A DNA stretch of 64,000 nucleotides, from contig NC_083338.1 of NCBI RefSeq assembly GCF_019175385.1, forward strand, positions 88,185,777-88,249,776, given 5' to 3'. The number at the start of each line of letters is the position of its first letter. The stretch's first letter is position 1. Made by a program: the position numbers and the translations under genes. Below, in pieces: positions 1-64,000 of the stretch. The stretch comes from Lycium barbarum (lineage: Eukaryota > Streptophyta > Magnoliopsida > Solanales > Solanaceae). A model generated the notes under the pieces. It was not told the DNA's origin. It was given only the letters and a program-made list of their open reading frames with translations, and searched no databases.

Positions 1-1
1 T

Positions 2-42383: not shown

Positions 42384-43880
42384 ATGGTTCGGGGGAAAGC
42401 AATCGCTCAAAGGAATACGTCCAAAGCGGGGAAGAAAATTGTTATAACCCGTGTTTTTACACGTTTGGAAAGACTTGAATTATATTGGATTCTTGAGATA
42501 TAAGGTCAATTTGATATTTTGTTGAACCTAGGAGTTATGCACGAAAGAATAGAGTCATGAAAGTGTGGGACAAGGCTAAGGGTAATTTTGGAATTTTGGA
42601 AATTTGTTCCGGGAATTACAAAATACGATCCACAAATTATTGGGCTTGTAAAATAATAAGCAAATTTAAGGCCCAATGCATTGTAGTGGCCGGCCATGGT
42701 GCCCAAGCCCAAAACTTTGTATTAAATTTCCATAAGATTAATTGGCATAATGGCCTTGATCCAAGCCCATTAAGTGGTCATGTGCCTGGTCATGTGACCA
42801 AGTCATTATAAGATATACATTTGAAGGTTCAAGACTTATAAGCAAGATCAAAAAAATCAAGAACAACACAAAGAAAAAAAAAAGAGGCTCTCGGGTTTGG
42901 CCATGGAAAAATAGCTATCCAAAATATTATTCCAAAAATTTATTTCTTGTTGTTTTCCTACTAAGTTAAGGTTCCTTTGTAACTTGGTATAGTTGGTTTG
43001 GAGTGGGGAGCATCCAATTCACCGAAGTGATCATATATCCAAGTGAAGAGAACTTGAAGAAAAGGTAAGAATTTCTACCTTTTAATTGTGTTATGAAGTT
43101 TTGATTGTGTTGTAGTTTATGGAAATGTGTTGATTGTATGAAGAAATGGAAGTTTGCAATGTGGGTTTGGTATATGGCTTGTAGCCGTGTGTATATGCAT
43201 GTTGTATAGCCAAATTGTATTGTAATTATGTTATATTCTAGTTATGATTGTGATGAAATGCATATGGGAATTGAAAGTTGGATGAATTTAGTTGATATGG
43301 AAAAATAGCATATGGCCGTGTGGTATGTTGGCTATGGAATGGAATTGATTAAGTTGTTTAGTGTATTGGAGTGTTGTTGTAATGCTTGATATGTAAATGA
43401 AGTTAGAATGATATAAGTTTGTATTGAATTGGAATGTAGAAACTTATGTCGTTTTAGTATGATTTTCCGACATTAAGGAAATGAAGTTGTTTGGTTGTGA
43501 ATTATGGTGATCATTGATGAATTTGGAAGTTGGAAACTTGTTATGAAGTTGGATGCCAAAGATTTGATGTTTTGCATAAGTTATGATTTTGGCGGAAAGT
43601 TGTATATTATGTATATCGAGTGTATATCTTAAGGCAAACGATATGAAATGTATCTAGAACTATATGGTGATGATCTTGATTGTTGATGAATGTGAAATTA
43701 TTGATATTAGTGGAAGTTTGGATTGAAATGAAGGTTATGTCAACTTGTGAGAAAAATGTCTAGTTGAAGGATATTTGTGTTCTTAATGTTCTTTGTTGAT
43801 GTTAATGTTGTCGTTTGGGTTGTTGTTGATGATTTCTAGCCGATTTGAATTTTCGGGGTGCCATATGTATAGGGGAAGTG

Positions 43881-43898
43881 CTGCCGAAATTTCGGTAG
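43881..43898 (+). repeat. CTGCCGAAATTTCGGYAG palindrome
   Basis: An 18 bp near-perfect palindrome. It recurs in at least five other LTRs (17950, 31688, 35368, 48436, 54860), always about 1 kb or more upstream of the hairpin core. Confidence 0.7.
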
Positions 43899-45016
43899 CC
43901 AAATATGCTTAAAGTTGTAATAATGGCATTAATAACTCACAATTGGTAAACTTGACCAATTGCAGTTTTTCGACGAAACGGGAAGTGAGTTTGGAAAGGC
44001 TTAAGGGGCGTGAAAGGTATGTAAAGCAAACCCAATTCTTCCCTTGGCATGCCCTTAGTGTATTAGGGTCGGATCCGGGCCTCGAAGGACCTCTTGGCCC
44101 TCGGAATCCGCAAGACAAAATTTCAGTTTTTCCTTCAGTAGAATTGAACCATTTTGATACGCTTTTTCTGAAATTATGCAATTGTGCTCTAAATTACTCA
44201 GAAAGTCATAGAATGTCTGTATAACCTTCGTAGATGATATTATATGTTTAGAGGGCACAATTTGAGCCCGCCGCCTTATTTGTTCTGAGGCGGGCCCACT
44301 ATTTCCGGTTTTGCCCCTAATGTGTTAAAGCTTCCTTTTTAAGCGATTTTTGAAAGAAATGTTTTAATTACCCTACTAATCCCTTAACGAATATTATTTT
44401 AAATATTCTGTTAAATATTATAAATTATCTTGACACTCGGAATGACTTCGGGAAAGTTATACTTCTGTAATTTATTATGATATCCGAAATACATGTATTA
44501 TGAATCCGTCCGACCCCATTGGATTTGTTTGTCTTTGATACGCTTCATCGAGTCTTTGAAAACATTTATTATATTTTTAAATTGCATTAGTCTCTCACTA
44601 CTCCATTCGTGGATGTCCCAATGTTTCCCACACTGAGCCCGGGCCAGGATATGTTGTCAAGCGTAATTCTCTGCATTGTTCGCCGCGTCCCGATGTGAGG
44701 GGGCAGGTATACGCGTACATGGGTCTGTGGAGTATGATGTGCCATGTCCGCCTATTCTGATCTGATCTGATCTGTTATGGCCATTTTGATACGATATTAT
44801 ATGATACGGGGCCACGCCCCTCTTCTAATTCCTCTGTATTGTGGCACCAGTGTTGGGAGGGTGACCACGTTCTGTCTGCCGAGTCCCGTGGCAGGGATCG
44901 GATATGATATGACATATGTTTCTGTACACATTCTGTCTGATTTGGAAATATGCATTTGACACTCTGGAGTTTGTACCCATCTTCTGTAATTATTATGATT
45001 TGACTTCTGTGATTCC

Positions 45017-45088
45017 GCTTTACATATTCAGTACATATTTCGTACTGACCCCCTTTCTTCGGGGGCTGCGTTTTCATGCCGCGCAGGT
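45017..45088 (+). promoter_or_regulatory. Conserved LTR hairpin core, copy 8
   Basis: GCTTTACATATTCAGTAC start; GTACTGA arm; CCCCC...GGGGG middle stem; ends GCGCAGGT. Confidence 0.75.
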
Positions 45089-46489
45089 ACAGACGACAGG
45101 TTTGCTGATCCGCACGTTTAGGATCCCATTTCTGCTATTTTGGGGCGCTCTATTCTACAGAGCCCATCTTTTGGTACAGTTTGTCACTGCTATCTGGATA
45201 TGTACTTTGTTCAGGGTATGACGGGGCCCTGTCCCGTCTTATGATTATGATATGTTCTGTAGAGGTCTGTGGATACATCTGTGTGGGTTCTGTACATATG
45301 TTTGGGATGTTTTGTTTTATGATAGCCTTATCGGCTTCTGTGTGCCAAGTCTGCTCTTCTGCTAAATTCTGTAGCATCCACTAATGTTATTATTATATTA
45401 TTATTATTCTGATAATATGCTAATTTGGGTATCGGGTACGTATAGGTGCCCAGCTAGGGCACTGGTCGCGGCCCACGGGGTTGGGTCGTGACAAAAATGG
45501 GAAGAAAAGGAAAGCCCCAGCTCAGTCTGAAGAGCAGGGGAATTGGACCCATGTGGATGGGCAATCCTTACCTCCTGCCGAACTACAAATTGCAACCACT
45601 ACTACGGGATAAGGTGATGCCACCGCTCAACTCCTTAGAGAAGAATTAGAAAAAAGGGTTCGGTATGAAAATAGCCTTTGATTCAAGGATAACGGGGTAA
45701 AGGAGCGCTATGATCAAAAGCGCACCTTTAACTTCAAAAAACAAGTCAGCCTGAGGGGATTAGAGGAATCCTTTCCTCGTATTCTTGAGCAATTAAAGAA
45801 GAGGAACTGGATGGTTTTCACAAAACCTCCAGGTGTATTTGTTCCTACACTTGTGAGGGAATTCTATGCATGTCTAATAGTGACCATGGGAAAAAAGAAA
45901 GCGTATATTAGAGGTACTGTGGTTCGGGGAGTGAGTGTTGCCTTGTACCATGAGCGGATCAACCACCATTATTTTAGCAACCATGGGTCACCACTCCAAG
46001 AGTATGAGAAAAAATCCAGAAAGACAACATTGAGAGTCAGCGAGCGTGGGTGGATGAACTAATTGCTGCTCCGGGTACTACTCCACCTTGGATTTAGCCG
46101 CACATACCAATTCAAGAGGCCATCCCGAACATCAAAGCTATGTTTTGGCTATCATTCATCAACAGTCGATTTTGACCGTCACAAAATGAAACATTGGTAG
46201 GCCTTCCCAAGACGGTTCTTATTGCACGTATCATGGCTGGGATCCATTTGAATATGGGCAGGATTATGTACTACCACATCATTGAAAGAGCGTGGCAGAC
46301 TACTCGGGCCCTACCATTTCCTTGTTCAATCACCGCTATATACCGAAGGGTAAAAGTTCCTACTTTTCACCCGGTGGATAAAGATTGCACACTGAAGTTA
46401 TTCCTTCATTTACTAATTCTTGCCTTATTGGGTTGATAAAAATGGAGTCTTGCAAATTGTTTCCACCCTAGGAATGTGAAATGTATAAT

Positions 46490-47000: not shown

Positions 47001-47077
47001 CATGTGGAGACTGTATGGTGTAAATTAGTTCATACGTTACTTGATAAGAAGCCCTCATAAACATAAGCTAAGGTCGG
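46490..47077 (+). mobile_element. 5' fragment of an LTR inserted in the Athila env region
   Basis: It begins TGTTACACCCCG at 46490 and resembles the U3 of the solo LTR at 33067 (shared text near AAACAAAAGCC and TCCAGTTTCCA). It carries a GCGCGAACGCG palindrome cluster (46842-46910) and an (AT)n run (about 46965-46997). It stops at 47077, where the gag-only element begins. Its remainder is not found to the right of that element, where a different LTR starts. Confidence 0.7.
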
Positions 47078-49539
47078 TGTTACATCCGACATTTTTGTTT
47101 ATTCGAAAGATTCAAGATAAATTGATTTGTGATGAATAAGGCCACAATTGGACCTTACTTGGTATGAATGTGTAGGTTATGAATTCAATGGTGTGGAATT
47201 ACGAAAGGTGGCCAAGGGCAAAATTGGAATTTTGGAAACTTGCCCATGAACTACAATATGTAGCCATCAATTTTGGGCTCAAAAAAAAATAATAAAGCAA
47301 GGCCCAATAATGGAAGGCCCAACCGGCCATGGTGTGAAAAAAAGGGGCCCAAGTCCATGATTTTAATTAGGTAATATTATATATGGTTATACATATCCAT
47401 AGAAGGTTCAAGAAAGCAAGAAAAATCAAGAAATAGAGAACAAGACCATTTCGGGTTTGAGAGGAGAAAAAGAAAGAAAAGAAAGAAAATTCTTGGAGCC
47501 TAATCCTTGAGTTTATAATTCAATTCTTGTGGGAATACTACTAAGTGCAAAGTCCTCTAAAACTTGGTACAATTAGTTTGGCAAGAGGACAAGTTTAGTG
47601 CAAAGTGAAGAACTTGAAGAAAGGTAAGGATTTTATGCTTTTGTTATGTTATGGAAGGTATATGTATGTTGTAGTATGTGTGAATGAATGAAAAACATGG
47701 AAATTTTATGTGTTGAAAAGTATGCTTGTTGGCCGAATACATGTACATGTATTACATGTCTTGGATGATTTGAATTCATGTTGTAATTTAGTTGTAGTGT
47801 GGTGGAAATTGTATTAGAAATGAAAGTGGAATGAATTAGTGAAAATTGAAGAATGTAGGAGGTGGCCGTGTGGTATGGTTATGTGTTGATGGAGTATGAA
47901 TTTGATCTTGTTTGTATGTTAAGTGTGTTATGGTGAAGTGAATGGAAAGATAACAATCCTTGTTGTCTTGGAAAAATGGTTATCAAGTTGTTGTAGGAAA
48001 GTATGCAACTTTGTTATGGTTTATGTAAAAATGGAAATGAAAGTATCAAGAGGCAAATTATGATTATTGTTGATGAATTTGGAAGATGGAAATGTATAAT
48101 TAACTTGTATGTTGAAAGTTAGGAAAAATTGGATAAGTAGTGGCTTAATGGAAAGTTGGTATGTTTCGCATATCTTGTGTATATTGTGTGGAAATGGTAT
48201 GATATGCCTCCGACGTATGTTGTGATGATTTTGATGGTTGATGAATATGAAAATGATAAGTTTGGTTTGGAAATGTAAGTTTGAAACGAAAGATGTTTCG
48301 TTATGTCGAAAGATGGCTAGTGATGCCATAGTGTATGTTTTAATGTCTATTGTTGTTTTGATGTCATTCTGGGTTGTTGTGTTGATGAATTGAGCCGAGC
48401 TAAGTCTTGGGGATGTCTTATATACAGAGGAAATGCTGCCGAAATTTCGGTAGGCAAGTATGTGTTAAGTTGGATTATTGAAAAGTTTGAAACTAACAAA
48501 TGGTAAACTTGACCATTTCTAGATTTTTGACGAAATTGGGATTGACGCCAAGCGAGCGTAAGGCGCTATCGAGGTATGTGAAGCATTTCCCTTTGTTCCT
48601 AGGCATGTTCTGGATGTGATAGGCTCGGCCGCGAGCCTTAAGTACGACTCCGTTCCCCGGAATTCGAGACGGAAAACCGTTCCAATTCCTTCAATTCATT
48701 TGAAGCTATTTTCTTGCAAATTGCCTTTAAAGTGAGTTTTTGTACAAAACCTCCCTAAACGGAGTCGGAACACTTCCAAACGATTATGGATGACCTCATA
48801 AGGTCTATTAGCGATAATTTACATATGTTTCCTCGAGTTGGTCCGAGGCGGGCCCACAAGGCCCGATATCTTCTGTAATACTTTAAATACTTCCCTTTTG
48901 TCCGATTTTCTCAGAAAACAATTGAACTATTATTTTGATTATGATACAACTATTTTTACGCAATTCTTACAAAATGATTTCTGAACATCTGAGAATCTGA
49001 TTCTGCTAATAATATGTCGTGCCTTCCCAAGTAGGATATAGGCGCGTACTATGCATACTATCTGGATACTCTGATTTTGACTCGCCGTTTGGCACCCTTC
49101 AGTTTGATTGAGTCTGTATGTTGAGTCTGTATGTAAGTAGTTTCTCATTTATCGGTTCGTGTCTGTCTCAATGCATTCCTTCACTGCGTCCCGGGCCAGG
49201 TTCTGTTATCGTGCATATTTCTCTGCATTGTTCACCGCGTCCCTCGGCGTGCGGGCCGAGATCTGTATGTCTGTATGATATTATGATCTATGTATGGGGA
49301 TGGCGGCCAGGATGGCATATGATCTGAGCTGATTCTGTCTGTCCACCGCGTCCCGTACTAAGAGGGCCGGGTTCTGTTACCGCGCCCCCAGACAGGGCCG
49401 GGATCTGTATGAATGTATGCGTGTGCTATCTATATTTATATAAGCACATGCCTCTGTATGATTCTGTATGACTCTGTACTACTCTGCATGCATAATTCTG
49501 TCCGACATACTTCTGTCTGTCCGTCTGAAAGACGACTAC

Positions 49540-49625
49540 GTCTGTATGTCCGTATGGATTCTGATTCTGTATGTCCGTATGGATTCTGATTCTGTGTGTC
49601 CGTATGGATTCTGATTCTGCTCGTC
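49540..49625 (+). repeat. 26-28 bp tandem repeat in LTR (second copy at 55965-56050)
   Basis: TGTCCGTATGGATTCTGATT occurs three times in direct succession within a longer TCTGT-rich stretch. The 3' LTR carries the same array. Confidence 0.85.
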
Positions 49626-49797
49626 TGTCCGTATTATGATTCCGTTGCCTGTCCGAACCATAATTCTGTTTATTTGTATGGGACTCGGTTCTGTATGTCT
49701 GTCTGGATCATGACTCTGTCCGTCAGTCTGATTTATGGTTCTGTTCGTTATATTTCTGTGACTCCGGTTCGGACTATGTTTATATCTGTTATGTTCT

Positions 49798-49867
49798 GCT
49801 TTACATACTCGGTACATTTTTTGTACTGACCCCCGTTCTTCGGGGGCTGCGCCACATGCCCGCAGGT
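49798..49867 (+). promoter_or_regulatory. Conserved LTR hairpin core, copy 9
   Basis: TCGGTAC arm, GTACTGA arm (here with a T change in the loop side), CCCCCG-TTCTT-CGGGGG perfect stem, ending CCCGCAGGT. The 3' LTR copy is at 56222-56291. Confidence 0.8.
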
Positions 49868-50293
49868 ACCGACGCACCAGGTGATACGCCGCCAGCGTAG
49901 GGTTCTAATTCTGCTGTTTGAAGAGCTCCTTTGATCCGGAGCGTATACTTTTGGTATATATATCTTCTGTCTTCTGTATACTCTGTATGTATGGATATTC
50001 TGGGTACGGCGGGGCCCTGTCCCGTCATATGATTCTGTATGTCTGTAGAGGCCTGTAGATAGATGTGTGGGTTACGGGTTTCGTCTGTATGTCAGCCTTA
50101 TCGGCTTATCTGTATGTTTCTGTATGTTCTTATATATATATGTTTGCGCGCGTGCCGTAGTTGTATCGGCCTACTTCTGTAACTTCTGTTTAAAAAAAAA
50201 AATCCGTATGATTCGAAAGTCAGTCGGGTAGGTATGTACGGGTACCCAGTTAGGGTACCAGTCGCGGCCCACGGGGTTGGGTCGTGACAAAAG

Positions 50294-50305
50294 TTGTATC
50301 AGAGC
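50294..50305 (+). promoter_or_regulatory. Primer-binding site, initiator-Met type, one mismatch
   Basis: TTGTATCAGAGC follows the 5' LTR after AAAG; the expected form is TGGTATCAGAGC, as in the second element at 58793. Confidence 0.8.
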
Positions 50306-50489
50306 GGTTAGTCCTCGGTATGTCTACAGGCCGTGTCTAGTAGAGTCTTGTTTATCGATGTGTTGTGCACCATATCTATAAACAGGAAGCTACAGGGCAT
50401 TTAGGATGTTACCCTTCTTTGGATTCTTAGATCGTGCGATAGAACTGTATTAGTAGGATGATCCTCTCCTAACGATATGCTATGTTTCA

Positions 50490-51965
50490 GTGATGCCTCC
50501 GAAGAAGGCAGCAGCTGCCCAGAAGGGCAAGGCGAGGATAGAGGCAGGAGAGACCAGCCGGGCCCCGCGGGTTACCAGGGCCAGTGTGCAGCCTGCATTT
50601 GAGGATGTGCCCCCGTCGTTTGGATCGGTTACACCCCCTTTGCCGGAAGATATCAGAGCAGCAGAAGCTGCTAATCGGGAGACGGGTCCACCGCAAGCTC
50701 CTGAGGTTCCAGTGCCCGAGCCTCCAGCTCCACAGGCAGGGGCGGAGGGTAGGGCCATGCGAGATGCGGTTCAGTTATTGACCACGTAGATGACGGAGCA
50801 GGTTCGCAGGCATGGATTTGGGGCTGGTCGTGCGGACAGGTATGAGAGCTCCAGGGCTCGTGAGTTTTTGACATGTAATCCTCCAGAATTCTCCGGGACA
50901 AAACCTGAGGAGGACCCCCAGGAGTTCATTAGAAAGATGGAGAGCACACTACGATTGATTAAGGCTTCGCCGACTGAGTCTGTGGAGTTGGCTTCGTATC
51001 GATTATATGAGGTGGCGGCAAATTGGTATGAGTCTTGGCAGCTCTCCAGGGGTGACGATGCTTCCCCAGCGGTATGGGCCGAGTTTACTAAGGCCTTTCT
51101 TGACCATTTTCTACCACCAGAGCTACGGAGAGCTAGGGTTGATCGGTTCTTGAACCTGAGACAGAATGGTAGAAGTGTTCGCGAGTACAGCCTAGAGTTT
51201 GACTCACTGGCTAGGTATGCGCCCGCCATAGTAGCCGAGATGGCCGACAGGGTGCACAGGTATGTGATGGGACTAGACTCTTATCTGATTGACGGTTGCT
51301 TGGCCATGGCTTCTCAGCCAGGGATGCATGTAGCCCGGGTACAGGCATACGCCCAGGGCATGGAGGACCGACGTAGGGAGCGTCGGCCTGATAGGGGTTA
51401 CGATAGGGGCCGACCTAAGAGAGCCAGATCGGCTGGATATTCAGGGGGATTTCAGGGTGAGCCTTCCCAGCGGCAGGGTAACAGGTATTCGTCCCAGCCA
51501 GCCTACAGTACACCACCACAGTTCTCGGGACAGAGCTCCAGAGTCCCAGGCCCACAGCTGAGCAGAGGTCCCGGTCAGTCGAGGCCACCCATACCCCCAT
51601 GTTCTTACTGTGGGAGACCCCACCCGGGGGAGTGTTATCGCGCTACGGGCGCTTGTTATTTTTGTGGGAGCCCAGACCATCGAGTCAGAGAGTGCCCGCT
51701 TAAGGGCAGTTCAGGTTCAGCCCGGCCTGCTGGGTCCGTTGCAGGCTCATCTTCTCCTTCAGTAGCTATACACCCCACGGGGCGAGGAGCACCAGCACCA
51801 GCACCAGCGCCAGCGGGTCGTGGCAGAGGACGCGGTGCAACTTCTGGTTACAGCGGTCCTTCAAACCGCGTGTTTGCTTTGACCGGCCGGCAGGACCCAG
51901 GAGCGTCTTCGAGCGCACGCCCAGGTACGCCAACGATTCTTTTTGAGAGATATATGTGTGGATAA
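50490..51965 (+). CDS. Gag protein of the non-autonomous element (one in-frame stop)
   Basis: The frame starts MPPKKAAAAQKGKARIEAG at 50490 and runs 99 codons to a TAG (50787-50789), then 391 codons to 51965. The N-terminal part is Pro/Ala-rich. The capsid (retrotransposon gag) domain follows: FSGTKPEEDPQEFIRKME, LASYRLYEVAANWYESW, FTKAFLDHFLPPELR, VREYSLEFDSLARYAP. A basic linker precedes two zinc-binding motifs: CSYCGRPHPGEC (variant), then CYFCGSPDHRVRECP, a canonical CX2CX4HX4C knuckle (near 51650-51695). The C-terminus after ALTGRQDPG differs from that of full elements, where protease follows. Conserved gag with a single stop suggests recent activity; the TAG would need readthrough, or an internal start (an ATG follows at once). 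Confidence 0.85.
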
Positions 51966-52185
51966 GTCTGTATTTTGCTGCATTACGTGATCTTATACGT
52001 CTGGGTATTAGAATTTGTAAGGTAAATGTTAACTTGGTAGATACCGAGATTCAAAAGGCGACATGGTAATTGTACGATTTAGCCGGGGATGGGACCCGCT
52101 ACAAATTTTTTTTTGAAAATTTGTTAAGACCCCGATTTGCCCAAAAATTACGTGACAGAGGTCGTGCGGGGCGATCGACGAAATT

Positions 52186-52278
52186 ATATCAGCCCTAACG
52201 CGTCGAAATGCATGAAAGTTTCGGAGTTAAGCGTGCTCAAGCCAGAGCAATTCTGGGATGGGTGACCCCCTGGGAAGT
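52186..52278 (+). pseudogene. 5S rRNA-derived block, copy 1 (positions 11-103 of 5S)
   Basis: Aligned without gaps to plant 5S rRNA as I recall it, about 69 of 93 positions match. The match is perfect across GTTAAGCGTGCT (A-box region) and across GGATGGGTGACC and CTGGGAAGT (box C), whereas the 5' half is diverged. Positions 1-10 and the last 17 bases of 5S are not recognisable. A TTTT lies at 52287-52290. This is not a normal 5S gene, since it sits alone inside a retrotransposon. Confidence 0.85.
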
Positions 52279-52744
52279 AATGCAAAGTTTTGCACAAGTG
52301 TAGGTATGATGGATATAAATGAAAATTTGGGGTAATCTAAAGGAAAAGAGAATGTGTGGAGTAATTAGTGCCTTTACAGAAGCCACACAGACCGACGCGG
52401 ATTAAATGGGCAAAAAGGAAAGGTGCGACACCGTTCGGGAAATTGAGCGAATCTGAATAACAGTCAGAGACGTCCGCCAGTAAGACATTAGTAGATATAT
52501 CTGTATGTGTGTATGTGTATGTGTGTATGTATGATTTTCGTTTGGTGCCCATATGGGTTAAGAACCGAGTCCCGGCAACTAACGTTGTGATAGACGAAAG
52601 ATAAGAAGTGCGAATAAGCGGAATCTTTGAAAAAGTCGATAAGCGACACGCGAGACGATTTGTGAGATAACTTGGTTGACCAGGGTACCAATAAGGGAAT
52701 TTTCCATAAAGCACTGGAGCCTTACTAAGAGTGATCTGATTCGG

Positions 52745-53165
52745 CTTCAGATTTTATCTATTATGCTTCTGCACTTCGATTCTGCTAAGGCTCTGTCTAT
52801 TACGCCTCTATGCTTCTGAACTCGATTATGTCCCCACCTGATAAATCTTTGTACATCTGATCCTGAATATGTTTCTGGTCGACATACTTCTGTATGATTG
52901 ATCCTGAATACGTTTCTGTCTGACACACCTCTGTATGTCTGACTCCGGATATGAATCCGTCTGATATGCTTCTGTGCGTCTGATTTCGATCGTACGCCTG
53001 TCTGATACATCTCCGTATGTCTGATCTTGATTACGACCCTATCTGATACATTTCTGTCCGCCTGACTTTGACTACGAATCCGTCCGCCATGGTTTAGTAC
53101 GTCTGCCTCCGATTACGAATCCGTCCGATATGCTTCTACGCGTCCGGTCCTAGTTCTGAATCTGT
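52745..53165 (+). repeat. Degenerate tandem repeat, about 45-50 bp period
   Basis: Repeated words such as TCTGATCCTGAATA, GAATCCGTCTGATATGCTTC and GATACATTTCTGTCCG recur roughly every 45-50 bp, eight or nine times. It lies between the 5S-like block and the polypurine tract. Confidence 0.7.
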
Positions 53166-53460
53166 TTGGTATGAAGTGTCTGGTTTGAAGTGGGACTATG
53201 ATAGCGTGGTAGGGAACTCAGCAGTGTCACAAGAAATGATATGGACTATGACGTCTGGAAAGCATTCGTTTGTTACGAGAATATAGTTTATGGTCCGATA
53301 ATTATGTGGGGTATAAAAATATAGATTATGAAGTTATTTGAATCAGTGACGAGAAGAATTACCCCCTCATGTAGGCGAAGAAACCATGTCGGAAAGTCCA
53401 CGAAGGACAATTATAAAGAGGACCCTCCCGAAGTAGTATGATGCCCCATAAGGTCAATTT

Positions 53461-53502
53461 AACATTCGAGGACGAATGTTTCTAAAGGGGGGGGGGGGAG
53501 GA
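53461..53502 (+). promoter_or_regulatory. Polypurine tract and upstream inverted repeat
   Basis: AACATTCG-AGGA-CGAATGTT (53461-53480) is followed by AAAGGGGGGGGGGGGAGGA (53484-53502), directly before the 3' LTR. It is identical in design to 910-945. Confidence 0.85.
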
Positions 53503-56500
53503 TGTTACATCCGACATTTTTGTTTATTCGAAAGATTCAAGATAAATTGATTTGTGATGAATAAGGCCACAATTGGACCTTACTTGGTATGAATGTGTAG
53601 GTTATGAATTCAATGGTGTGGAATTACGAAAGGTGGCCAAGGGCAAAATTGGAATTTTGGAAACTTGCCCATGAACTACAATATGTAGCCATCAATTTTG
53701 GGCTCAAAAAAAATAATAAAGCAAGGCCCAATAATGGAAGGCCCAACCGGCCATGGTGTTAAAAAAAGGGGCCCAAGTCCATGATTTTAATTAGGTAATA
53801 TTAGATATGGTTATACATATCCATAGAAGGTTCAAGAAAGCAAGAAAAATCAAGAAATAGAGAACAAGACCATTTCGGGTTTGAGAGGAGAAAAAGAAAG
53901 AAAAGAAAGAAAATTCTTGGAGCCTAATCCTTGAGTTTATAATTCAATTCTTGTGGGAATACTACTAAGTGCAAAGTCCTCTAAAACTTGGTACAATTAG
54001 TTTGGCAAGAGGACAAGTTTAGTGCAAAGTGAAGAACTTGAAGAAAGGTAAGGATTTTATGCTTTTGTTATGTTATGGAAGGTATATGTATGTTGTAGTA
54101 TGTGTGAATGAATGAAAAACATGGAAATTTTGTGTGTTGAAAAGTATGCTTGTTGGCCGAATACATGTACATGTATTACATGTCTTGGATGATTTGAATT
54201 CATGTTGTAATTTAGTTGTAGTGTGGTGGAAATTGTATTAGAAATGAAAGTGGAATGAATTAGTGAAAATTGAAGAATGTAGGAGGTGGCCGTGTGGTAT
54301 GGTTATGTGTTGATGGAGTATGAATTTGATCTTGTTTGTATGTTAAGTGTGTTATGGTGAAGTGAATGGAAAGATAACAATCCTTGTTGTCTTGGAAAAA
54401 TGGTTATCAAGTTGTTGTAGGAAAGTATGCAACTTTGTTATGGTTTATGTAAAAATGGAAATGAAAGTATCAAGAGGCAAATTATGATTATTGTTGATGA
54501 ATTTGGAAGATGGAAATGTATAATTAACTTGTATGTTGAAAGTTAGGAAAAATTGGATAAGTAGTGGCTTAATGGAAAGTTGGTATGTTTCGCATATCTT
54601 GTGTATATTGTGTGGAAATGGTATGATATGCCTCCGACGTATGTTGTGATGATTTTGATGGTTGATGAATATGAAAATGATAAGTTTGGTTTGGAAATGT
54701 AAGTTTGAAACGAAAGATGTTTCGTTATGTCGAAAGATGGCTAGTGATGCCATAGTGTATGTTTTAATGTCTATTGTTGTTTTGATGTCATTCTGGGTTG
54801 TTGTGTTGATGAATTGAGCCGAGCTAAGTCTCGGGGATGTCTTATATACAGAGGAAATGCTGCCGAAATTTCGGTAGGCAAGTATGTGTTAAGTTGGATT
54901 ATTGAAAAGTTTGAAACTAACAAATGGTAAACTTGACCATTTCTAGATTTTTGACGAAATTGGGATTGACGCCAAGCGAGCGTAAGGCGCTATCGAGGTA
55001 TGTGAAGCATTTCCCTTTGTTCCTAGGCATGTTCTGGATGTGATACGCTCGGCCGCGAGCCTTAAGTACGACTCCGTTCCCCGGAATTCGAGACGGAAAA
55101 CCGCTCCAATTCCTTCAATTCATTTGAAGCTATTTTCTTGCAAATTGCCTTTAAAGTGAGTTTTTGTACAAAACCTCCCTAAACGGAGTCGGAACACTTC
55201 CAAACGATTATGGATGACCTCATAAGGTCTATTAGCGATAATTTACATATGTTGCCTCGAGTTGGTCCGAGGCGGGCCCACAAGGCCCGATATCTTCTGT
55301 AATACTTTAAATACTTCCCTTTTGTCCGATTTTCTCAGAAAACAATTGAACTATTATTTTGATTATGATACAACTATTTTTACGCAATTCTTACAAAATG
55401 ATTTCTGAACATCTGAGAATCTGATTCTGCTAATAATCTGTCGTGTCTTCCCAAGTAGGATATAGGCGCGTACTATGCATACTATCTGGATACTCTGATT
55501 TTGACTCGCCGTTTGGCACCCTTCAGTTTGATTGAGTCTGTATGTTGAGTCTGTATGTAAGTAGTTTCTCATTTATCGGTTTGTGTCTGTCTCAATGCAT
55601 TCCTTCACTGCGTCCCGGGCCAGGTTCTGTTATCGTGCATATTTCTCTGCATTGTTCACCGCGTCCCTCGGCGTGCGGGCCGGGATCTGTATGTCTGTAT
55701 GATATTATGATCTATGTATGGGGATGGCGGCCAGGATGGCATATGATCTGAGCTGATTCTGTCTGTCCACCGCGTCCTGTACTAAGAGGGCCGGGTTCTG
55801 TTACCGCGCCCCCAGACAGGGCCGGGATCTGTATGAATGTATGCGTGTGCTATCTATATTTATATAAGCACATGCCTCTGTATGATTCTGTATGACTCTG
55901 TACTACTCTGCATGCATAATTCTGTCCGACATACTTCTGTCTGTCCGTCTGAAAGACGACTACGTCTGTATGTCCGTATGGATTCTGATTCTGTATGTCC
56001 GTATGGATTCTGATTCTGTGTGTCCGTATGGATTCTGATTCTGCTCGTCTGTCCGTATTATGATTCTGTTGCCTGTCCGAACCATAATTCTGTTTATTTG
56101 TATGGGACTCGGTTCTGTATGTCTGTCTGGATCATGACTCTGTCCGTCAGTCTGATTTATGGTTCTGTTCGTTATATTTCTGTGACTCCGGTTCGGACTA
56201 TGTTTATATCTGTTATGTTCTGCTTTACATACTCGGTACATTGTTCGTACTGACCCCCGTTCTTCGGGGGCTGCGCCACATGCCCGCAGGTACCGACGCA
56301 CCAGGTGATACGCCGCCAGCGTAGGGTTCTAATTCTGCTGTTTGAAGAGCTCCTTTGATCCGGAGCGTATACTTTTGGTATATATATCTTCTGTCTTCTG
56401 TATACTCTGTATGTATGGATATTCTGGGTACGGCGGGGCCCTGTCCCGTCATATGATTCTGTATGTCTGTAGAGGCTTGTAGATAGATGTGTGGGTTACG

Positions 56501-56713
56501 GGTTTCGTCTGTATGTCAGCCTTATCGGCTTATCTGTATGTTTCTGTATGTTCTTATATATATATGTTTGCGCGCGTGCCGTAGTTGTATCGGCCTACTT
56601 CTGTAACTTCTGTTTAAAAAAAAAAATCCGTATGATTCGAAAGTCAGTCGGGTAGGTATGTACGGGTACCCAGTTAGGGTACCTGTCGCGGCCCACGGGG
56701 TTTGGTCGTGACA
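53503..56713 (+). mobile_element. 3' LTR of the gag-only element
   Basis: 3211 bp, nearly identical to the 5' LTR. Differences seen by eye are scattered single-base changes, mostly transitions, plus short homopolymer length changes. Confidence 0.93.
56222..56291 (+). promoter_or_regulatory. Conserved LTR hairpin core, copy 10
   Basis: As copy 9 but with ATTGTTCGTACTGA, which restores the first stem. Confidence 0.8.
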
Positions 56714-57014
56714 GTGCGGCCGACATTTAGGGGTTTTATAAAGGACATATGAAAAATCATAAGAGTAGTACATGGGAAGTTGAGCAAGTCTTAAGAAGGA
56801 CCCTTAAGCCAAATGTGGGCATAAGCTCTCCAAAAGGATGATTTAAGGATACGTTTTCGGATGATCTGACTTGGAGAGGCTAAAACGCCATAATAAGTTG
56901 GGAATTTGGAATCACACCAAAAATGAAAGTTATATATAATTGAATTAGCTTTCCAACCATAGGTCGTGGGCCCTCACATGATATCGAGATCAAAAGTTAT
57001 GACCCTTTTATTGA

Positions 57015-57125
57015 ACGAACGCGTAGGCAGTGGAATAAGCCAGCGCAAACGCGCTAGGAAGCAGCGCGAACGCGCTGACCATTTCTTAGGTCGGTGCAAC
57101 CCGAGCCTAAAATTTATAAAAGGGG
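57015..57125 (+). promoter_or_regulatory. U3 palindrome cluster and TATA box
   Basis: AGCGCGAACGCGCT (57063-57076) is a perfect inverted repeat. AGCGCAAACGCGCT (57042-57055) and CGAACGCG (57016-57023) precede it. TATAAAAG lies at 57115-57122. Confidence 0.65.
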
Positions 57126-57945
57126 CTTTACCTCCTTAACAGAAACCAAATATCCTCTAAGCCTCCTCCAAACCTCTAGAAACTTCCACCAACTTCCACT
57201 CATCAATTTTCACGCAAATCAAAGTATAATTTCCGAATTTCAGTCCAGACAGCGTATAGTTGTGATTATAAAATCGTAAAGCAGCGCGCTTTGGCTTTAG
57301 TCCAAGAAGGAAAGTGATGATATAACAATAATATTGGGAGTAAGGTATGAATCTCTTATCATTAATGTTAATTTCGATTTATTTACGGAGGTAAAGTCGT
57401 TAAACAATTGTGTAGCAAGTTGGTTAATTATTGAAATTGAAAAACACCGTGTGAGGTGTTTTATGGAATATTTTGGTGTTTATAATGATGTTATTTTTGT
57501 GGTTGTCGTTGTTGTTGTTGTGGGTTGCTGAGTTATAATTTCGGGCTGGGCATATAAACGGGGGAGATGTTGCCCGATTTTTGGCAGGATGTAGAACAGT
57601 TTAACTTGAAAGCTTAACACAAGTATTCTACGATGAGTCTAACGATAGTGTAAATCCTCTTAAATGTAGACTTACGAGCTCGGACGAATAAGTGTAGATA
57701 ATTGGAGGTTGAACCGGTACGTAAGGCTATCCCTTCTTTCTTTTTTTGGCATGAATTATATAAAACAAGCGAACGATGAACATACATGACTCCAATGAAT
57801 TCTAGTTCTCAGTGGTACATAACATGACAGTTGTCTTTGATTCTCAAGTGTTGATTCATTATAATTATTCTATTGAGTCTCAGATGATGATTCATTTTGT
57901 ACATGATTGTTCCTAATATCCTACTCGTGCACAGTTTTATTGCAT

Positions 57946-58185
57946 TATTTCACCGAGTCCATCACTAGAGGACAGGGTACGGTATATATGATTATTTCAC
58001 CGAGTCCCTCACTATAGGGTCGGGTACCGTATATGTATGATTATTTCACCGAGTCCCTTACTAGAGGGCCGGGTACGGTATATATATGATTATTTCACCG
58101 AGTACCTCACTAGAGGGCTGGATACAGTATATATGTATATGACTTCATCCACCGAGTCCCATAATGGGCCGGTACGGTATATTAT
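57946..58185 (+). repeat. 47-54 bp tandem array in LTR, five units
   Basis: TATTTCACCGAGTCC starts at 57946, 57993, 58042 and 58091, with a fifth diverged unit near 58141. Units include AGAGGGCCGGGTACGGTATA. Confidence 0.9.
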
Positions 58186-58298
58186 ATATATGCATGACTC
58201 TCATCTCATAAGGTACAGATGCATTGGTATCCTTGATTATCATACTTGCCTCCTGTCATCTTTTACTCAGTCATGATCTTCTTTATTGTACTTCACAT

Positions 58299-58369
58299 GC
58301 TTTACATACTCAGTACATTTTCCATACTGACCTCCTTTCTTCAGGGGTTGAGTTTCATGCCCGCAGGTA
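58299..58369 (+). promoter_or_regulatory. Conserved LTR hairpin core, copy 11
   Basis: GCTTTACATACTCAGTAC ... ATACTGACC ... CATGCCCGCAGGT. The first stem retains six pairs. Confidence 0.7.
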
Positions 58370-58792
58370 TAGATACTCAGTTTGGTGATCCTCTAGCTTA
58401 GGACTGCTACTCAGCTGCTTGAAGAGCTCCACTGTCCCGGAGCTTGAGTCATTTTGGTACAAATCCTTTTGACATAGATGTTGTTATACTCTTAGAGGTC
58501 TGTAGACATGTGTGGGTGGTATTTATGGATGGTCAGCTATACAGATGTAGTTCGTTTTGGATATTCCAGTGTATAGTGGCAGCTTTGTCGACTTGCATAT
58601 TTATGATGTTTTGGTTAACTGTGCCTTCTCAGGAGACAGGTTCATTTTGATATATGACATGATGAGTTTACAGCATGCTTTTACAGATTGCCATATTGTT
58701 TTTAGTTTCAGTCTAATTATGTTTAGCAGGTTCGTATACGAGTGTCCAGCTCGAGCACTAGTCATGGCCATCGGTTTGGGTGGTGACAAAAG

Positions 58793-58804
58793 TGGTATCA
58801 GAGC
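58793..58804 (+). promoter_or_regulatory. Primer-binding site, initiator-Met type
   Basis: TGGTATCAGAGC follows the LTR end after AAAG. The leader that follows is similar to that of the first gag-only element (GTCTACAG.CCGTGTC, GCAGGGCATTTAGGA). Confidence 0.88.
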
Positions 58805-59010
58805 AGTTAGTCATAGGGATTGTCTACAGACCGTGTCCGGTATAGTCCTATTTATGGGTGTGAAGATGGCTACGCTTATAAACAAGAGGCTGCAGGGCAT
58901 TTAGGAATCATTGCCCTTTCTTTCTATCTTAGATTGTGCGGTAGAGCCAGAGTCTAGGGGAGATTGTTTCTGACCCCTTTTTCCTGTAGGTAGGTGCGAA
59001 CTGACGAGAG

Positions 59011-59490
59011 ATGAAGAGATCAGCCTCGGATAGTGGGGGTGCTAAGAAGGCCCCCAGAGTAGATCCAGGACCCCAGGCTCCAAGACCGAGCAAAAAGAGC
59101 CTCAGTTATTCCATTGAGACAGATCCCTTGGAGGACCCAGCGACGATTCCTCCAGAGTTTTTGACTTCCAGGGAAGAGGACCCCTCGGGTGACAGTTATG
59201 ACACGGACCCATCTGAGGGTTTGTCTGGGACACCGGAGAAGGAGATCCCCGATGCCGCACCAGCTGCGACGTCTGACCAGCTACCCCGGTGAGTGTTACG
59301 GATTACTCTATCCCTTTATCCTGGCCGTCGGTAAACTAGGAGTTGCTCGATTATCCATATCCCTCAGACTCATATGAGAGAGATGATGAAGGCCAGACTA
59401 GCAGATGGTGGGTAGACAATGGCGAAGAGCACACTTCACTTTATAGTCCACCAGATCAGACTAGAGACCGATCGACTACAGGTATGTGAG
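59011..59490 (+). pseudogene. Degraded gag-position ORF of the second element
   Basis: It starts MKRSASDSGGAKKAPRVDPG, is acidic and Pro/Ser-rich, and ends at 59292. After shifts the reading SDSYERDDEGQTSRWWVDN and HTSLYSPPDQTRDRS follows (59364-59480). It occupies the gag N-terminal position, but I see neither the capsid domain nor a zinc knuckle, so most of gag is lost or replaced. It ends at ACAG|GTATGTGAG, a splice-donor-like sequence. Confidence 0.45.
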
Positions 59491-61357
59491 TCTTTATTGG
59501 AGATTCCTATGTATGTGCATTTGTTGTAGATTATTACTTAATAACGACGATCAGAAATCCTAAAGGGATCGATAACCAAGTATTTATAAGTAACGGCGAT
59601 CAAGGTGTTTCGCCACCATTGGTAATTTTGAAATCTAGGATGGAAGGTAGTTATACGCGCAGATGAAAGATGAATATTGAGGATTGAAAAGGCAAAAATA
59701 GTATTTGCGTAATCGGAAGAGTAAGAGATCCTTTCAAATTCGGAGGGAGATGCATTACGAGAATGTATTGGAATCTGTTCGAACTTCAACTTGTTCTAGG
59801 TCGTGTGAGGAAGGTCACACAGAAAGGTGGATGCGACCATACCGGTACTAATGCACCAGATATCATTAGAGCTTCAAGGTTAAGCGTGCTGGGGTGAGAG
59901 AAATACTAGGATGGGTGACCCCCTGGGAAGTATATTAAGAGCTCTACAAATTCAGACATAAGAGGCAGATGAGAAATTAAAGTAACCTAAGGGAAATTGG
60001 AGTATGAGGAGTGGTTGGAAACCCTAAAAGATCGCGAATGATGCGACGAACTAAACCGGCAAAGAGAAAGAAGGTGCATCACCGCTCTAGAACTAGGATA
60101 AGTTTGAAAGGTATTCGGACTTTGGAAGCGGGGTATTAGTAAATATATGTATGTATGTGTATGACATCCCATATGCGGCAGCGTCAACCGATATGTGTGC
60201 CCCAGCAACCGACGATGCTATATACTGAAAGCATTGATCGAACAGGGTATTGAAGTTCAAGTGACAAATGCTACCAGGTAAGTTGATGTTATTTTACTGC
60301 AGGTTAGATTTGGAAAGTCCTAATGCAATGACATCCGGGAAAGGAAGAAAGTGAGTATACAGAAATTAAGGAGACCAAAATGTTATGAAAAAAAAATGTA
60401 AGGAACAAGGGTGAGTGAATCTTCCAAGAGAGACGACGGGAAAGGCAAGGGACTATTGGATAAGATTTGAAAGTAGGCATGTGAAAAGGATAAAGTGTGG
60501 TAGTATGGAACAAAAGAGGAATGTGTGGGGTCAGATAACAGACTTCGATAAGTGGGACTAAATGATAGTGACCACAATAAGGAATGTAAAGTAAGAGAAA
60601 GAATGATCAGGCCTTGTAACGATGCTAAGAGATTTCCAGCTCTTGAGAAGTATATAAAGGGATAAATGTGTAGTCATATTGACATGGTTTCCTCAGACAT
60701 GGAGAAGCTTTCCTAAAAGATGACTTAAGGATAGAACGGATTTGCACGTTTAAAGGAATATTTCACGAACCTCAGGGTCGATACTGTAAATAACAAGAGG
60801 AGAAGGGCGCTCGAGGAAGAAGGAACCCAGGGAAGGTTGAGGATGAAGGTAGGAAAGGTATATTAATGGGCTGATCGAAAGGAGAGAGGAAAAAGGGAAA
60901 ATTGGGAAATCACCAAAGGCAAGCGAGAGGATAATGAATTAGCAAACTAACCGGAAGGTAGTACATTAATAACTTAGGATGAGGATAAAACAATTACCGA
61001 GATTCGATTATAGAGGAAACAAAAGAGTGTATGGGAAATATTCATTAGTATGGACTAGCCTTGGAGACAGGAAGGAGAAGAAAGAAGAGAGTATATTGCA
61101 GGGATTTCAAGACACGAACAAGAAGATGCAGGATACTGGAAGAATTACAACGCATAGATGGGATGCAAATAAGTAGTCAAGAATTTTTTTGGATAAGTGA
61201 GCTAAGTGAGAAAAAGGGATTGATAGTGGGAACAGAAGAGTGTAGTATATTAATTTTCAATAGTACACTGTAAACGTAAGGTGAAACTAGCAACTCAGAG
61301 TAAGAAGAATTCCAGTGATAATAGTTGTGGAGGAAAACGAGGACAAACGGAGCAAAG
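59491..61357 (+). other. Non-coding internal domain of the second element
   Basis: It contains the 5S-derived block and a segment homologous to the first element. The remainder to 61357 is purine-rich with no credible gene; short frames at 60979-61273 show no domain. No polypurine tract or 3' LTR is seen, so the element is truncated, probably where the minus-strand LTR starts. Confidence 0.55.
59829..59931 (+). pseudogene. 5S rRNA-derived block, copy 2 (positions 1-103 of 5S)
   Basis: It begins GGATGCGACCATACC and aligns without a gap to the first 103 bases of plant 5S rRNA as I recall it; about 87 of 103 match. GTTAAGCGTG and the box C region GGATGGGTGACC plus CTGGGAAGT are unchanged. The last 17 bases of 5S are missing and no T-run follows closely. 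It sits alone, at the position equivalent to copy 1. Confidence 0.9.
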
Positions 61358-61770
61358 TGTGACCAAACGCTCTAAAAAACATTTTGACGGGTATCCGGAG
61401 CTAACTACCGATCACCACTCGTTCTACTACTCATCAAACTTAACTTGCCTTCATTTATTATTCCTGACACAACTAGCCATGAGGAGGAATCATTTTCACT
61501 TTCAAAACATATCTACATTTATATACATAAGCCCTCCGACTATCAAAATGATATACAAAATTACAACGTAGTCATCATGGGACATCTACTACCCACATGT
61601 ATGTATCTACGAGCCTCTACTAGAGTACTGAACATAAAGACGGGACAGGACCCCGTCGTGCCCAAAACATATATACACAAAATAGTAAAACAAATGGCAC
61701 CTCCGGAATAATGGAGTGCTCTCGTAAATCTGCTGATCAGCTCCTATGAATCTGGGTCGCCTCCCTGTCT

Positions 61771-61844
61771 ACCTGTGGGTATGAACACAGCGTCCAAAAA
61801 AAGAAAAATACGTCAGTACTAAATATGTATTGAGCATGTAAGGC
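61771..61844 (-). promoter_or_regulatory. Conserved LTR hairpin core, copy 12
   Basis: A degraded copy: on the minus strand CTCAATAC...GTACTGACG, ending CATACCCACAGGT. Confidence 0.6.
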
Positions 61845-62010
61845 ATGAGTAGTAACATAAATAAAACGTGAAGGACAACATAAGATAAAAAACCAAGTAA
61901 TACCTTTTGAGATATTCGTCATACTTGCTTTACCTTTTCTCAGGAATCGTGGAATGCACATACATATACATATTATAATACCGTATCTGCTCATACACAT
62001 TAAACATTAT

Positions 62011-62170
62011 CCGTATTCGGCCACGTAGTGGCTCGACAGTACCCGTATTCGGCCACGTAGTGGCTCGACAGTACCCGTATTTGGCCACGTAGTGGCTCGA
62101 CAGTATCCGTATTCGGCCACGTAATGGCTCGATAATATCCGTATTCGGCCACGTAGTGGCTCGACAATAT
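62011..62170 (-). repeat. 32 bp tandem array in LTR, five units
   Basis: CCGTATTCGGCCACGTAGTG starts at 62011, 62043, 62075, 62107 and 62139. Unrelated in sequence to the 54 bp array in the sister LTR at 14131-16443. Confidence 0.93.
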
Positions 62171-64000
62171 CACATACATGTCATCCATACCCGCCATAAC
62201 AAGGCTCGGTATATCTCATTATCATCATTGCCATCACTACGGAAGTCTTTAATCAATATCATTTTAAGAGTCTTGGAAGTCGCAAATTCTAGGTTTTCTT
62301 AGGAATAAGACATTTTAACTGAATTCGTAATAAGGGTATTATGCTTCTATATCTCTTGGAAGGCATAATCATTTTCGCTATCATGATCGTTATTACTGGC
62401 ATATCTCCCTTTTGAAGAAAACAATGACATAAGAGAAGGCCAACTATCATGAATGTGATGGATACTCATACGGTATGCTCAATCATCCCATGAGGACATA
62501 TGGAACTTTAGTCTTTGGGTATCACTGGGAGGGGAATTACCATCATAATCGTTGTCATGAAGAACATTCATCAACATCATCATAATGGCCTTAAGAATCA
62601 TGGAAGCCTAGCATTTTAGGAGTAAGGACAATATGGAAAACAAGCGTGGGGTCACAACATAGGAATTACCATTATAAAGATCCTTATCGTTTATATCGCA
62701 AGGTTCATGAAAGTTGTGGGTGTCGTATGTAGTTTGAAAACTATGGAATCATCATCGTTATCATAGGACATATCTCATCTCTGGCTCACAAGAAAACTCT
62801 TAATAATCATGGAATACATGGGAGATACAATACAGGGGTCATGCCTTAGGAAGGAAAGGGGCTAGCATCATAAGGTGGGTCTAGCAATGATGAATAACAT
62901 CAAGGAGTCGTACAAGGATCATTAGCTTCGTAGAATTCCATGTCGTATTCGTAGCATGAATTTCGTGAAGACATCATATCATAGGCTTTAGAATCTCTAG
63001 TCTCAGGCTCGTCATTGCCATTATCGTATTCATAACATATGTCTTATTCTTTTATCTCATAAGAAACTCTACATAACGTTGACTCATATTTTCCGGAATG
63101 TAAGAAAGTCATAGAGAGATAAGGGAAGTCATGTCATAAGAATCATGCCTTAGAAAGAAGGGACTAGCCTTACATACCTTTATGTCTCTCCAACTTTATC
63201 AATTAAACGCTTTTCTCCAAGGTTCACGATTCTACCTTCAAGAGAATTCGTACTAAGATTTGATAATTGGAACATAGTTAGGCTTAAGCTAAAGCTAACG
63301 AAAATTGGGCAGCATCTCCTTTGTTTCTACAACTTCCTCCATATGCTATAACAACTCCCAACATCAATAACAACATTCATAATATCATAATCATTTACTT
63401 TGTCAAGTTCGACATTATTAAATTCCCACAATTCCTTACAAAAATGATTCATGACCATAGTTATGGCATAACATCGTATTTGTTCTCATATAATACCTCC
63501 TTACCATCGTTTGTATCATTTACAACAAGATTTCACTCATAATACCTCAAGAATCATGATCCATGTCAAACTTGTATTCAAGAATACCACTATTCTTATA
63601 TTTGTAACCCGTTTTCTACCCTTTCCATAATCCAAGTCTTTCAACCCTTCAATATTCTAAATAACATGAAATGATCATAAAACTCACCTTTGATTTTATA
63701 GAAATGGGGTGAGTTTTAGATGGAAATGCTTCACTTGAAGAAAACCCTAGCTCTACTTCCAAAGAAATTCTTGACTTCTAGCAATCCTAAAGAGGTTCTT
63801 TGCACTTGATTTCCTTGGATTAATGATGTTGATCTTTGATTTGCCTTGGATTTATGTAAATGGAGTGTGGAGAAGGCTCTAGAGGTGTGTAGAGGGTTTT
63901 TGGGAGTGTTTGGGGTCTGTTGGTGAAGAAAAATGGGAAAAAAACGAAGTGGGACAAATATATGTAACTTGGAACTTTTCCACCGACAGCAACTTACGGT

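What the first reader, a model, noticed from the sequence alone, without database searches (positions are those of the whole stretch)
52186..59931. Gag-type non-autonomous retrotransposons carry a 5S rRNA-derived block in the internal domain
Two related but clearly diverged elements each contain, between the gag region and the 3' end, a block aligning without gaps to plant 5S rRNA (52186-52278, about 74%; 59829-59931, about 84%, both counted by eye against a remembered consensus). In both, the intragenic promoter boxes (GTTAAGCGTG and GGATGGGTGACC) are unchanged while the rest diverges, and both lack the last 17 bases of 5S. Flanking non-coding DNA is also homologous, so the block was inherited in a family. 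5S sequence is established in the LTRs of Cassandra TRIM elements; a 5S block in the internal domain of long gag-type gypsy elements is not something I know to be described. It could recruit TFIIIA/Pol III, aid RNA export, or act in packaging or dimerisation. These roles are inference.
Basis: partly seen in the sequence, partly recalled or inferred. Interest (0 to 1): 0.88.

Follow-up and report, generated by a model that had tools for sequence, protein, structure and literature searches.

The report
5S promoter inside goji gag retrotransposons
In this plant genome (goji, judged by matching contig lengths) thousands of repeat copies carry nucleotides 1-103 of 5S ribosomal RNA, the sampled ones inside LTR retrotransposons that mostly lack a detectable polymerase gene, and because the 5S promoter boxes stayed nearly unchanged while the sequence around them drifted, they likely serve as landing sites for the Pol III factor TFIIIA.

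Summary
Rfam 5S hits lie at 59829-59947 (46.5 bits, above cut-off) and 52179-52293 (35.2 bits, just below; E 5.7e-4). Both correspond to host 5S nt 1-103. The first-listed element (47078-56713) has gag, then the block, then the 3' LTR; the second has no detectable gag or pol, so "gag-type" fits one of two. All 30 loci taken from the head of that list have the element's downstream flank. In 39 copies sampled by upstream flank, blind to the block, the internal control region varies 2.8-4 times less than the rest of the block and the flanks, chiefly at G/C sites. RNA-structure evidence is mixed, and many copies carry TTTT inside the block, so a DNA-level TFIIIA/TFIIIC docking site is my preferred reading (about 50%); no binding or transcription data exist. 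The end at +1 suggests capture of 5S RNA by template switching. Cassandra and Ajax carry 5S in LTRs; eight searches of the held open library found no internal-domain case. New variant of a known kind.

The parts
47078..50289 (+). 5' LTR of element 1
   Evidence: 99.4% identical to 53503-56713; TGTTACATCC...GTCGTGACA ends
50294..50305 (+). primer-binding site TTGTATCAGAGC, one base off TGGTATCAGAGC (initiator-tRNA-Met type, recalled)
   Evidence: sequence
50493..51965 (+). gag frame with one in-frame TAG at 50787; open part 50790-51965
   Evidence: Retrotrans_gag E 1.5e-17, Ty3_capsid, zf-CCHC; frame checked; relatives in Lycium, Solanum and Nicotiana
52176..52278 (+). 5S-derived block 1, host 5S nt 1-103, 210 nt after gag and 1,224 nt before the 3' LTR
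   Evidence: RF00001 35.2 bits; 76/103 identical to host 5S; distances
52226..52237 (+). box A core GTTAAGCGTGCT of block 1 (host 51-62)
52256..52267 (+). box C core GGATGGGTGACC of block 1 (host 81-92)
53485..53502 (+). polypurine tract before the 3' LTR
   Evidence: sequence
53503..56713 (+). 3' LTR of element 1
58793..58804 (+). primer-binding site TGGTATCAGAGC of element 2; its 5' LTR ends at 58788
   Evidence: PBS region 75% identical to element 1 over 158 bp
59829..59931 (+). 5S-derived block 2, host 5S nt 1-103
   Evidence: RF00001 46.5 bits; 87/103 identical to host 5S
59879..59890 (+). box A core of block 2
59909..59920 (+). box C core of block 2

Best explanation
Both blocks are copies of host 5S rRNA nucleotides 1-103 carried in the internal domain of a large family of mostly pol-less LTR retrotransposons, and their conserved promoter boxes likely work as a docking site for TFIIIA (with TFIIIC) on the integrated DNA. 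Shown: the homology, the ends at +1 and 103, the place between gag and the 3' LTR in gag-bearing copies, inheritance through the family, and lower variation in box A and box C than in the rest of the block and the flanks. Inferred: the block was probably captured from 5S RNA by template switching during reverse transcription, because a copy that runs off the RNA's 5' end would start at +1 and break inside at its 3' side; selection on active copies would then have kept the DNA-binding boxes. The docked factors would keep a silenced copy accessible, or recruit Pol III locally. Unlike in Cassandra, the block could not start the genomic RNA, because it lies downstream of the 5' LTR and gag. No binding or transcription was measured.
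For: 7,993 exact box pairs in the genome, reversed control 0, spacer 18 nt in all listed places but one; 252 have the host-type spacer. 30 of 30 loci from the head of that list match a reference element downstream, 29 of 30 upstream. In 39 copies chosen by upstream flank only, mean pairwise difference is 0.063 in the control region (box A 0.050, IE 0.132, box C 0.050), 0.174 in the rest of the block, 0.197 upstream, 0.249 downstream; 0 of 10,000 column permutations and 4 of 102 circular shifts reach it; for difference from host 5S 13 of 10,000 and 6 of 102. Ends: mean identity to the host is 0.37 at -12..-1, 0.76 at +1..+12 and 0.21 at 104-119 in the 39; 0.21, 0.86 and 0.18 in the 17 of element 2's group. 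TTTT inside nt 51-103 in 30/39 and 11/30 copies speaks against a full-length Pol III RNA as the point. The two window blocks do not fold better than shuffles (z +0.46, +0.36).
Against: The contrast is strong at G/C sites (kept 0.93 vs 0.55, p 2.6e-6) and slight at A/T sites (0.81 vs 0.80, p 0.03). Circular shifts, the fairer control for related copies, give only 4/102 and 6/102. IE is little conserved, and its CpG at nt 67 is gone in all 39 while the CpG at nt 24, outside the boxes, is kept in 92%. Indel rate is the same in nt 50-97 as in 1-49. Double-sided pair changes exceed shuffles, which would favour an RNA role. A gag-only group without the block has many copies. Box positions are recalled.
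Confidence: 0.5

Rival explanations
1. The block is a passive relic: captured once and carried along, with the boxes looking conserved because of mutation bias or chance of shared ancestry.
For: The contrast sits mainly at G/C sites, as expected if loss is driven by cytosine deamination; indel rates do not differ between nt 50-97 and 1-49; circular-shift support is modest, 4/102 and 6/102; block-less gag-only elements are numerous.
Against: Bias alone does not explain why G/C sites are kept at 0.93 in the promoter boxes and 0.55 beside them in the same block. Gene conversion by 5S genes would have renewed the whole block, which is not seen.
Confidence: 0.2
2. The block acts as RNA in the element's transcript: a 5S-like fold that binds TFIIIA or ribosomal protein L5 and helps export or packaging.
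For: Over 62 sequences, cells with changes on both sides of a pair are 25 against 14.7 shuffled (0/500), covariation score 3/500, paired cells 83.3% against 82.7% (11/500), at most 62% when the partner is slid; with an alternative helix III 80.0% against 78.3% (0/500). The helix II-III arm is in the predicted fold of L107 and L049.
Against: The tool warns that related sequences can exceed these shuffles. Pairs are often broken: 29-48 in 29 of 62, 30-47 in 23, 33-42 in 48. GC-to-AU double changes are also what deamination on both strands gives. Loop E's 5' strand (73-79) has changed while boxes have not. Window blocks fold no better than shuffles, and the family examples only z -0.17 and -0.65 (5 sequences folded). 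Helix I partners (104-119) are missing.
Confidence: 0.17
3. The block is an active Pol III promoter that makes a short, roughly 110-nt RNA from each copy, acting in trans.
For: Boxes intact; TTTT within 25 nt after the block in 15/30 and 22/39 copies against 0.05 and 0.08 in shuffles; block 1 has one at 52288-52291.
Against: No such TTTT in 0/17 of element 2's group, and TTTT already inside nt 51-103 in 30/39 and 11/30 copies. Upstream sequence differs from the host gene's.
Confidence: 0.1

Closest known systems
Cassandra TRIM retrotransposons (PMC10853983, passages seen; PMC7215508, listings only)
   Same: Non-autonomous plant LTR elements with a 5S-derived sequence and conserved 5S promoter boxes.
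   Different: Cassandra is about 600-900 bp, without genes, and has the 5S part in its LTRs, so 5S can start the genomic RNA. Here the element is 9.6 kb with 3.2-kb LTRs and a gag frame, and the 5S part is internal and ends at nt 103.
Ajax, a TRIMp3 of nemerteans (PMC10886601, outline and passages)
   Same: LTR element holding only part of 5S with the promoter.
   Different: Ajax has it in the LTR of a miniature animal element; the paper favours SINE3 as its source. Here the 5S part is internal and starts at nt 1.
Gag-only or large non-autonomous derivatives of Ty3/Gypsy chromoviruses (Tekay/Del type; recalled)
   Same: Gag, PBS, PPT and long LTRs but no pol; an element with a pol end lies in the same window (1-742).
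   Different: Such derivatives are not known to me to carry a 5S block; the P0022-type gag-only group of this genome lacks it.
5S-derived SINEs (SINE3; recalled, and in PMC10886601 passages)
   Same: 5S-derived head with conserved boxes.
   Different: Here the block is bounded on both sides by element sequence shared across the family; I saw no tail or target duplication, and block-less relatives share the downstream flank.

Membership tests
Cassandra | 5S-derived sequence in the LTRs | tested here: not met
   Both 5S hits are internal; no 5S hit in the element 1 LTRs among matches up to E 10
Cassandra | miniature element without gag or pol | tested here: not met
   Element 1 spans 47078-56713 with gag
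Cassandra | conserved 5S promoter boxes | tested here: met
Non-autonomous Ty3/Gypsy element | paired LTRs, PBS, PPT, Gypsy-type gag, no pol | tested here: met
   Element 1. For element 2 only 5' LTR end and PBS were seen
Tekay/Del lineage | placement by reverse transcriptase phylogeny | not tested
   No RT in the elements; the lineage name is recalled
Functional 5S rRNA gene | full 5S with helix I and 5S array context | tested here: not met
   nt 104-119 missing and flanks differ from the host array
Pol III type-1 promoter (TFIIIA site) | box A, IE and box C at 5S spacing | tested here: met
   Boxes A and C and spacing met; IE less conserved
Pol III type-1 promoter (TFIIIA site) | TFIIIA binding or Pol III transcription | not testable with these tools
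   No occupancy or RNA data on hand
5S-derived SINE | own 3' tail and target site duplication around the 5S part | tested here: inconclusive
   None seen by eye; downstream flank is shared with block-less relatives

The most novel reading that the evidence does not exclude
A non-autonomous Gypsy lineage captured 5S rRNA from the RNA pool and turned its gene-internal promoter into an element-internal TFIIIA/TFIIIC landing pad, spreading thousands of intact 5S control regions through one plant genome, some thirty times the host-type ones in the assembly; this network recruits Pol III factors that keep the elements open and may draw TFIIIA away from the 5S genes.
Probability: 0.3. Interest if true: 0.88.

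Novelty: new variant of a known kind. Interest (0 to 1): 0.72.

Why it matters
The cases of 5S promoters in LTR elements that I found described lie inside LTRs of miniature elements, where they can start the genomic RNA. A conserved 5S control region downstream of gag cannot do that, so it asks what else a Pol III factor site is good for in a retrotransposon: chromatin opening, insulation or a TFIIIA decoy. It also warns that 5S-like hits, probes and read counts in this plant may come from retrotransposons, since exact box pairs outnumber host-type ones about thirtyfold in this assembly (collapsed 5S arrays would lower that ratio).

Tried and rejected
Chance similarity: rejected. Independent insertions: rejected. 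5S gene arrays: rejected, since spacer and flanks differ from the host array. SINE insertion: not supported, because block-less relatives share the downstream flank from about the block's 3' edge (score above all 1,000 shuffles against L107, L049 and L118, but not L043, 49 against 51). Whether the block was inserted there or deleted from the block-less group stays open. RNA role: mixed. Gene conversion with 5S genes: would renew the whole block. Exact-pattern scans of viral and bacterial collections found nothing, as expected for a plant sequence. A search for autonomous copies (gag-protease protein P0006) did not complete, so whether any autonomous element carries the block is untested genome-wide; P0006 itself runs from gag into protease without a break, and no 5S hit lies in window 1-42000, which holds the pol-to-LTR gap of another element. 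The label 'gag-type' was dropped for element 2.

Literature: eight answered searches of the held open-access library listed no report of 5S in the internal domain of an LTR element; most subscription papers are not held, and I read no paper whole. Seen: PMC10886601 outline and passages; PMC10853983, PMC7076952 and PMC5672077 passages; all others listings only.
Full report
What is there. The covariance model of 5S rRNA hits the window twice, at 59829-59947 (46.5 bits, E 5.7e-7, above the family cut-off of 38) and at 52179-52293 (35.2 bits, E 5.7e-4, below it). Positions 1-42000 have no 5S match, and the box C string occurs only at these two places. Against the host's own 5S gene, taken from the tandem array on contig 6 of the same genome (L070), block 1 is identical at 76 and block 2 at 87 of the first 103 positions. 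Between the blocks, the control region agrees at 33/39 and the rest at 38/64 (Fisher p 0.008).

Element 1. Two 99.4% identical LTRs, 47078-50289 and 53503-56713, enclose a primer-binding site, a gag frame (Retrotrans_gag E 1.5e-17, Ty3_capsid, zf-CCHC) with one in-frame stop at 50787, the 5S block 210 nt after gag, 1,224 nt of further DNA and a polypurine tract. No pol match was seen in the matching locus L010. Element 2 has a 5' LTR ending at 58788 and an exact TGGTATCAGAGC primer site; its internal DNA has no gag or pol similarity (best E 0.08), and its 3' LTR is not seen in the window, where an LTR on the minus strand fills about 61380-64000.

The genome. The window lies at G000:C2:88185777-88249776 of a 1.67-Gb assembly. 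Of eleven contig lengths seen, five (C4, C7, C8, C11, C12) equal those printed for Lycium barbarum proteins, five (C1, C2, C3, C6, C10) differ from listed ones by 3-15 kb, and C9 is not among them; I take the species as goji, perhaps in another assembly version. The exact pattern box A, 12-22 free bases, box C occurs 7,993 times (4,065 forward, 3,928 reverse; reversed control 0); the spacer is 18 nt in all listed places but one. 252 places have the host-type spacer; of the 100 listed there, 80 lie in the contig 6 array. Block 1 has 40 scored relatives out of 2,054 candidates, at 99-100%; block 2 has 40 out of 2,334, at 90-100%. Both counts of 40 are caps.

These are elements. Of the first 30 loci of the pattern list (all on contig 1), 30 match one of four reference elements downstream and 29 upstream. 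Within the 1.5 kb held on each side, 8 of 30 show gag, 16 of 30 the CATTCGAGGACGAATG string that precedes the polypurine tract, and 2 of 30 (L066, L068) pol-like matches. Of the 30 loci nearest to block 1 (the window's own copy included), 18 show gag, 27 a polypurine-LTR junction or that string, none pol. The 8 loci nearest to block 2 show none of these. Between block-bearing gag subfamilies dS is 1.3-2.2 and dN/dS 0.12-0.18 (five such pairs of the 12 computed; two others, against the block-less group, are saturated; 4 of 14 copies carry one stop), so gag is under protein-level selection. Non-coding distances for those loci are smaller, 0.14-0.50 outside the control region (four of the five pairs), so the 3' part has either been exchanged between gag lineages or is itself constrained; I did not resolve this.

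Inheritance. Twenty loci chosen by element 2's downstream flank, from the 40: 17 carry the block, some with small indels, one a partial block, two none. Forty loci from the 275 places of an upstream-flank pattern, picked for different spacer text: 39 carry the whole block, one is cut inside it by what looks like an LTR start. Borders: in the 39, mean identity to the host is 0.37 at -12..-1, 0.76 at +1..+12 and 0.21 at 104-119; in the 17, 0.21, 0.86 and 0.18.

Conservation. In the 39 copies, mean pairwise difference per column is 0.050 in box A, 0.132 in IE, 0.050 in box C, 0.198 in nt 1-49, 0.111 in 73-79, 0.108 in 98-103, 0.197 upstream of the anchor and 0.249 downstream. No column permutation of 10,000 and 4 of 102 circular shifts reach the contrast; for difference from the host 5S 13 of 10,000 and 6 of 102. 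Box positions are recalled. The copies are related, so the shifts are the fairer control. The effect is strong at G/C sites (0.93 against 0.55 kept, p 2.6e-6) and slight at A/T sites (0.81 against 0.80, p 0.03). The CpG at nt 57 in box A is kept in 92%, those at 6 and 67 (the latter in IE) are nearly or fully gone, but one at 24, outside the boxes, is also kept in 92%; indel rates are alike in nt 1-49 and 50-97. In nine locus pairs the control region is always nearer than the rest of the block, but several of those loci were found by their exact boxes.

RNA or DNA. The 5S fold is kept in 83.3% of pair cells over 62 sequences against 82.7% shuffled (11/500), with more double changes (25 against 14.7, 0/500) and a higher covariation score (3/500) than shuffles, which related sequences can give without structure; pairs 29-48, 30-47 and 33-42 are broken in 29, 23 and 48 of 62 (alternative helix; predicted consensus keeps parts only). 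Of five sequences folded, the host gives z -1.66, the window blocks +0.46 and +0.36, L107 -0.17 and L049 -0.65, the last two with the helix II-III arm. TTTT follows the block within 25 nt in 15/30 and 22/39 copies but 0/17 of element 2's group, and lies inside nt 51-103 in 11/30, 30/39 and 0/17. A short Pol III RNA as the general product is thus unlikely, and a DNA-binding role fits best. This is inference.

Origin. A block that starts at the RNA's first base and ends inside it is what template switching onto 5S RNA during minus-strand synthesis would leave (inference and general knowledge). A more distant gag-only group (51% gag identity) lacks the block in 5 of 5 loci read, with the LTR about 275-285 nt after the gag match; its sequence resumes similarity to the block-bearing family at about the block's 3' edge, significant against three of four loci tried.

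Known or new. Cassandra and Ajax carry 5S in LTRs (PMC10853983, PMC10886601, passages). Eight searches of the held library listed no internal-domain case. I call it a new variant of a known kind, with the mechanism open.

Noticed in passing
47073-47077 and 56714-56718: Element 1 has no perfect target site duplication (GTCGG against GTGCG) although its LTRs are 99.4% identical; perhaps recombination between two insertions.
   Followed up: partly
42440-45493: A solo LTR of a related family, flanked by AAAAT on both sides.
   Followed up: partly
1-940: The pol end of another element (Tf2-1 SH3 domain, weak chromo domain below cut-off) with the same polypurine-LTR junction as element 1.
   Followed up: partly
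59011-59292: A 93-residue open frame where gag would begin in element 2, without gag similarity.
   Followed up: no
L010, L040, L049: Gag synonymous distance (1.3-2.2) far exceeds the distance of the non-coding part with the block, as if the 3' part had moved between gag lineages.
   Followed up: partly
60 nt upstream of the blocks in L104-L143: The non-coding stretch just upstream of the block (GACCCCGA ... AAGGTCGTGCG) is also recognisable across subfamilies; its role is unknown.
   Followed up: no
62004-62169: A 32-bp tandem repeat in the minus-strand LTR region.
   Followed up: no
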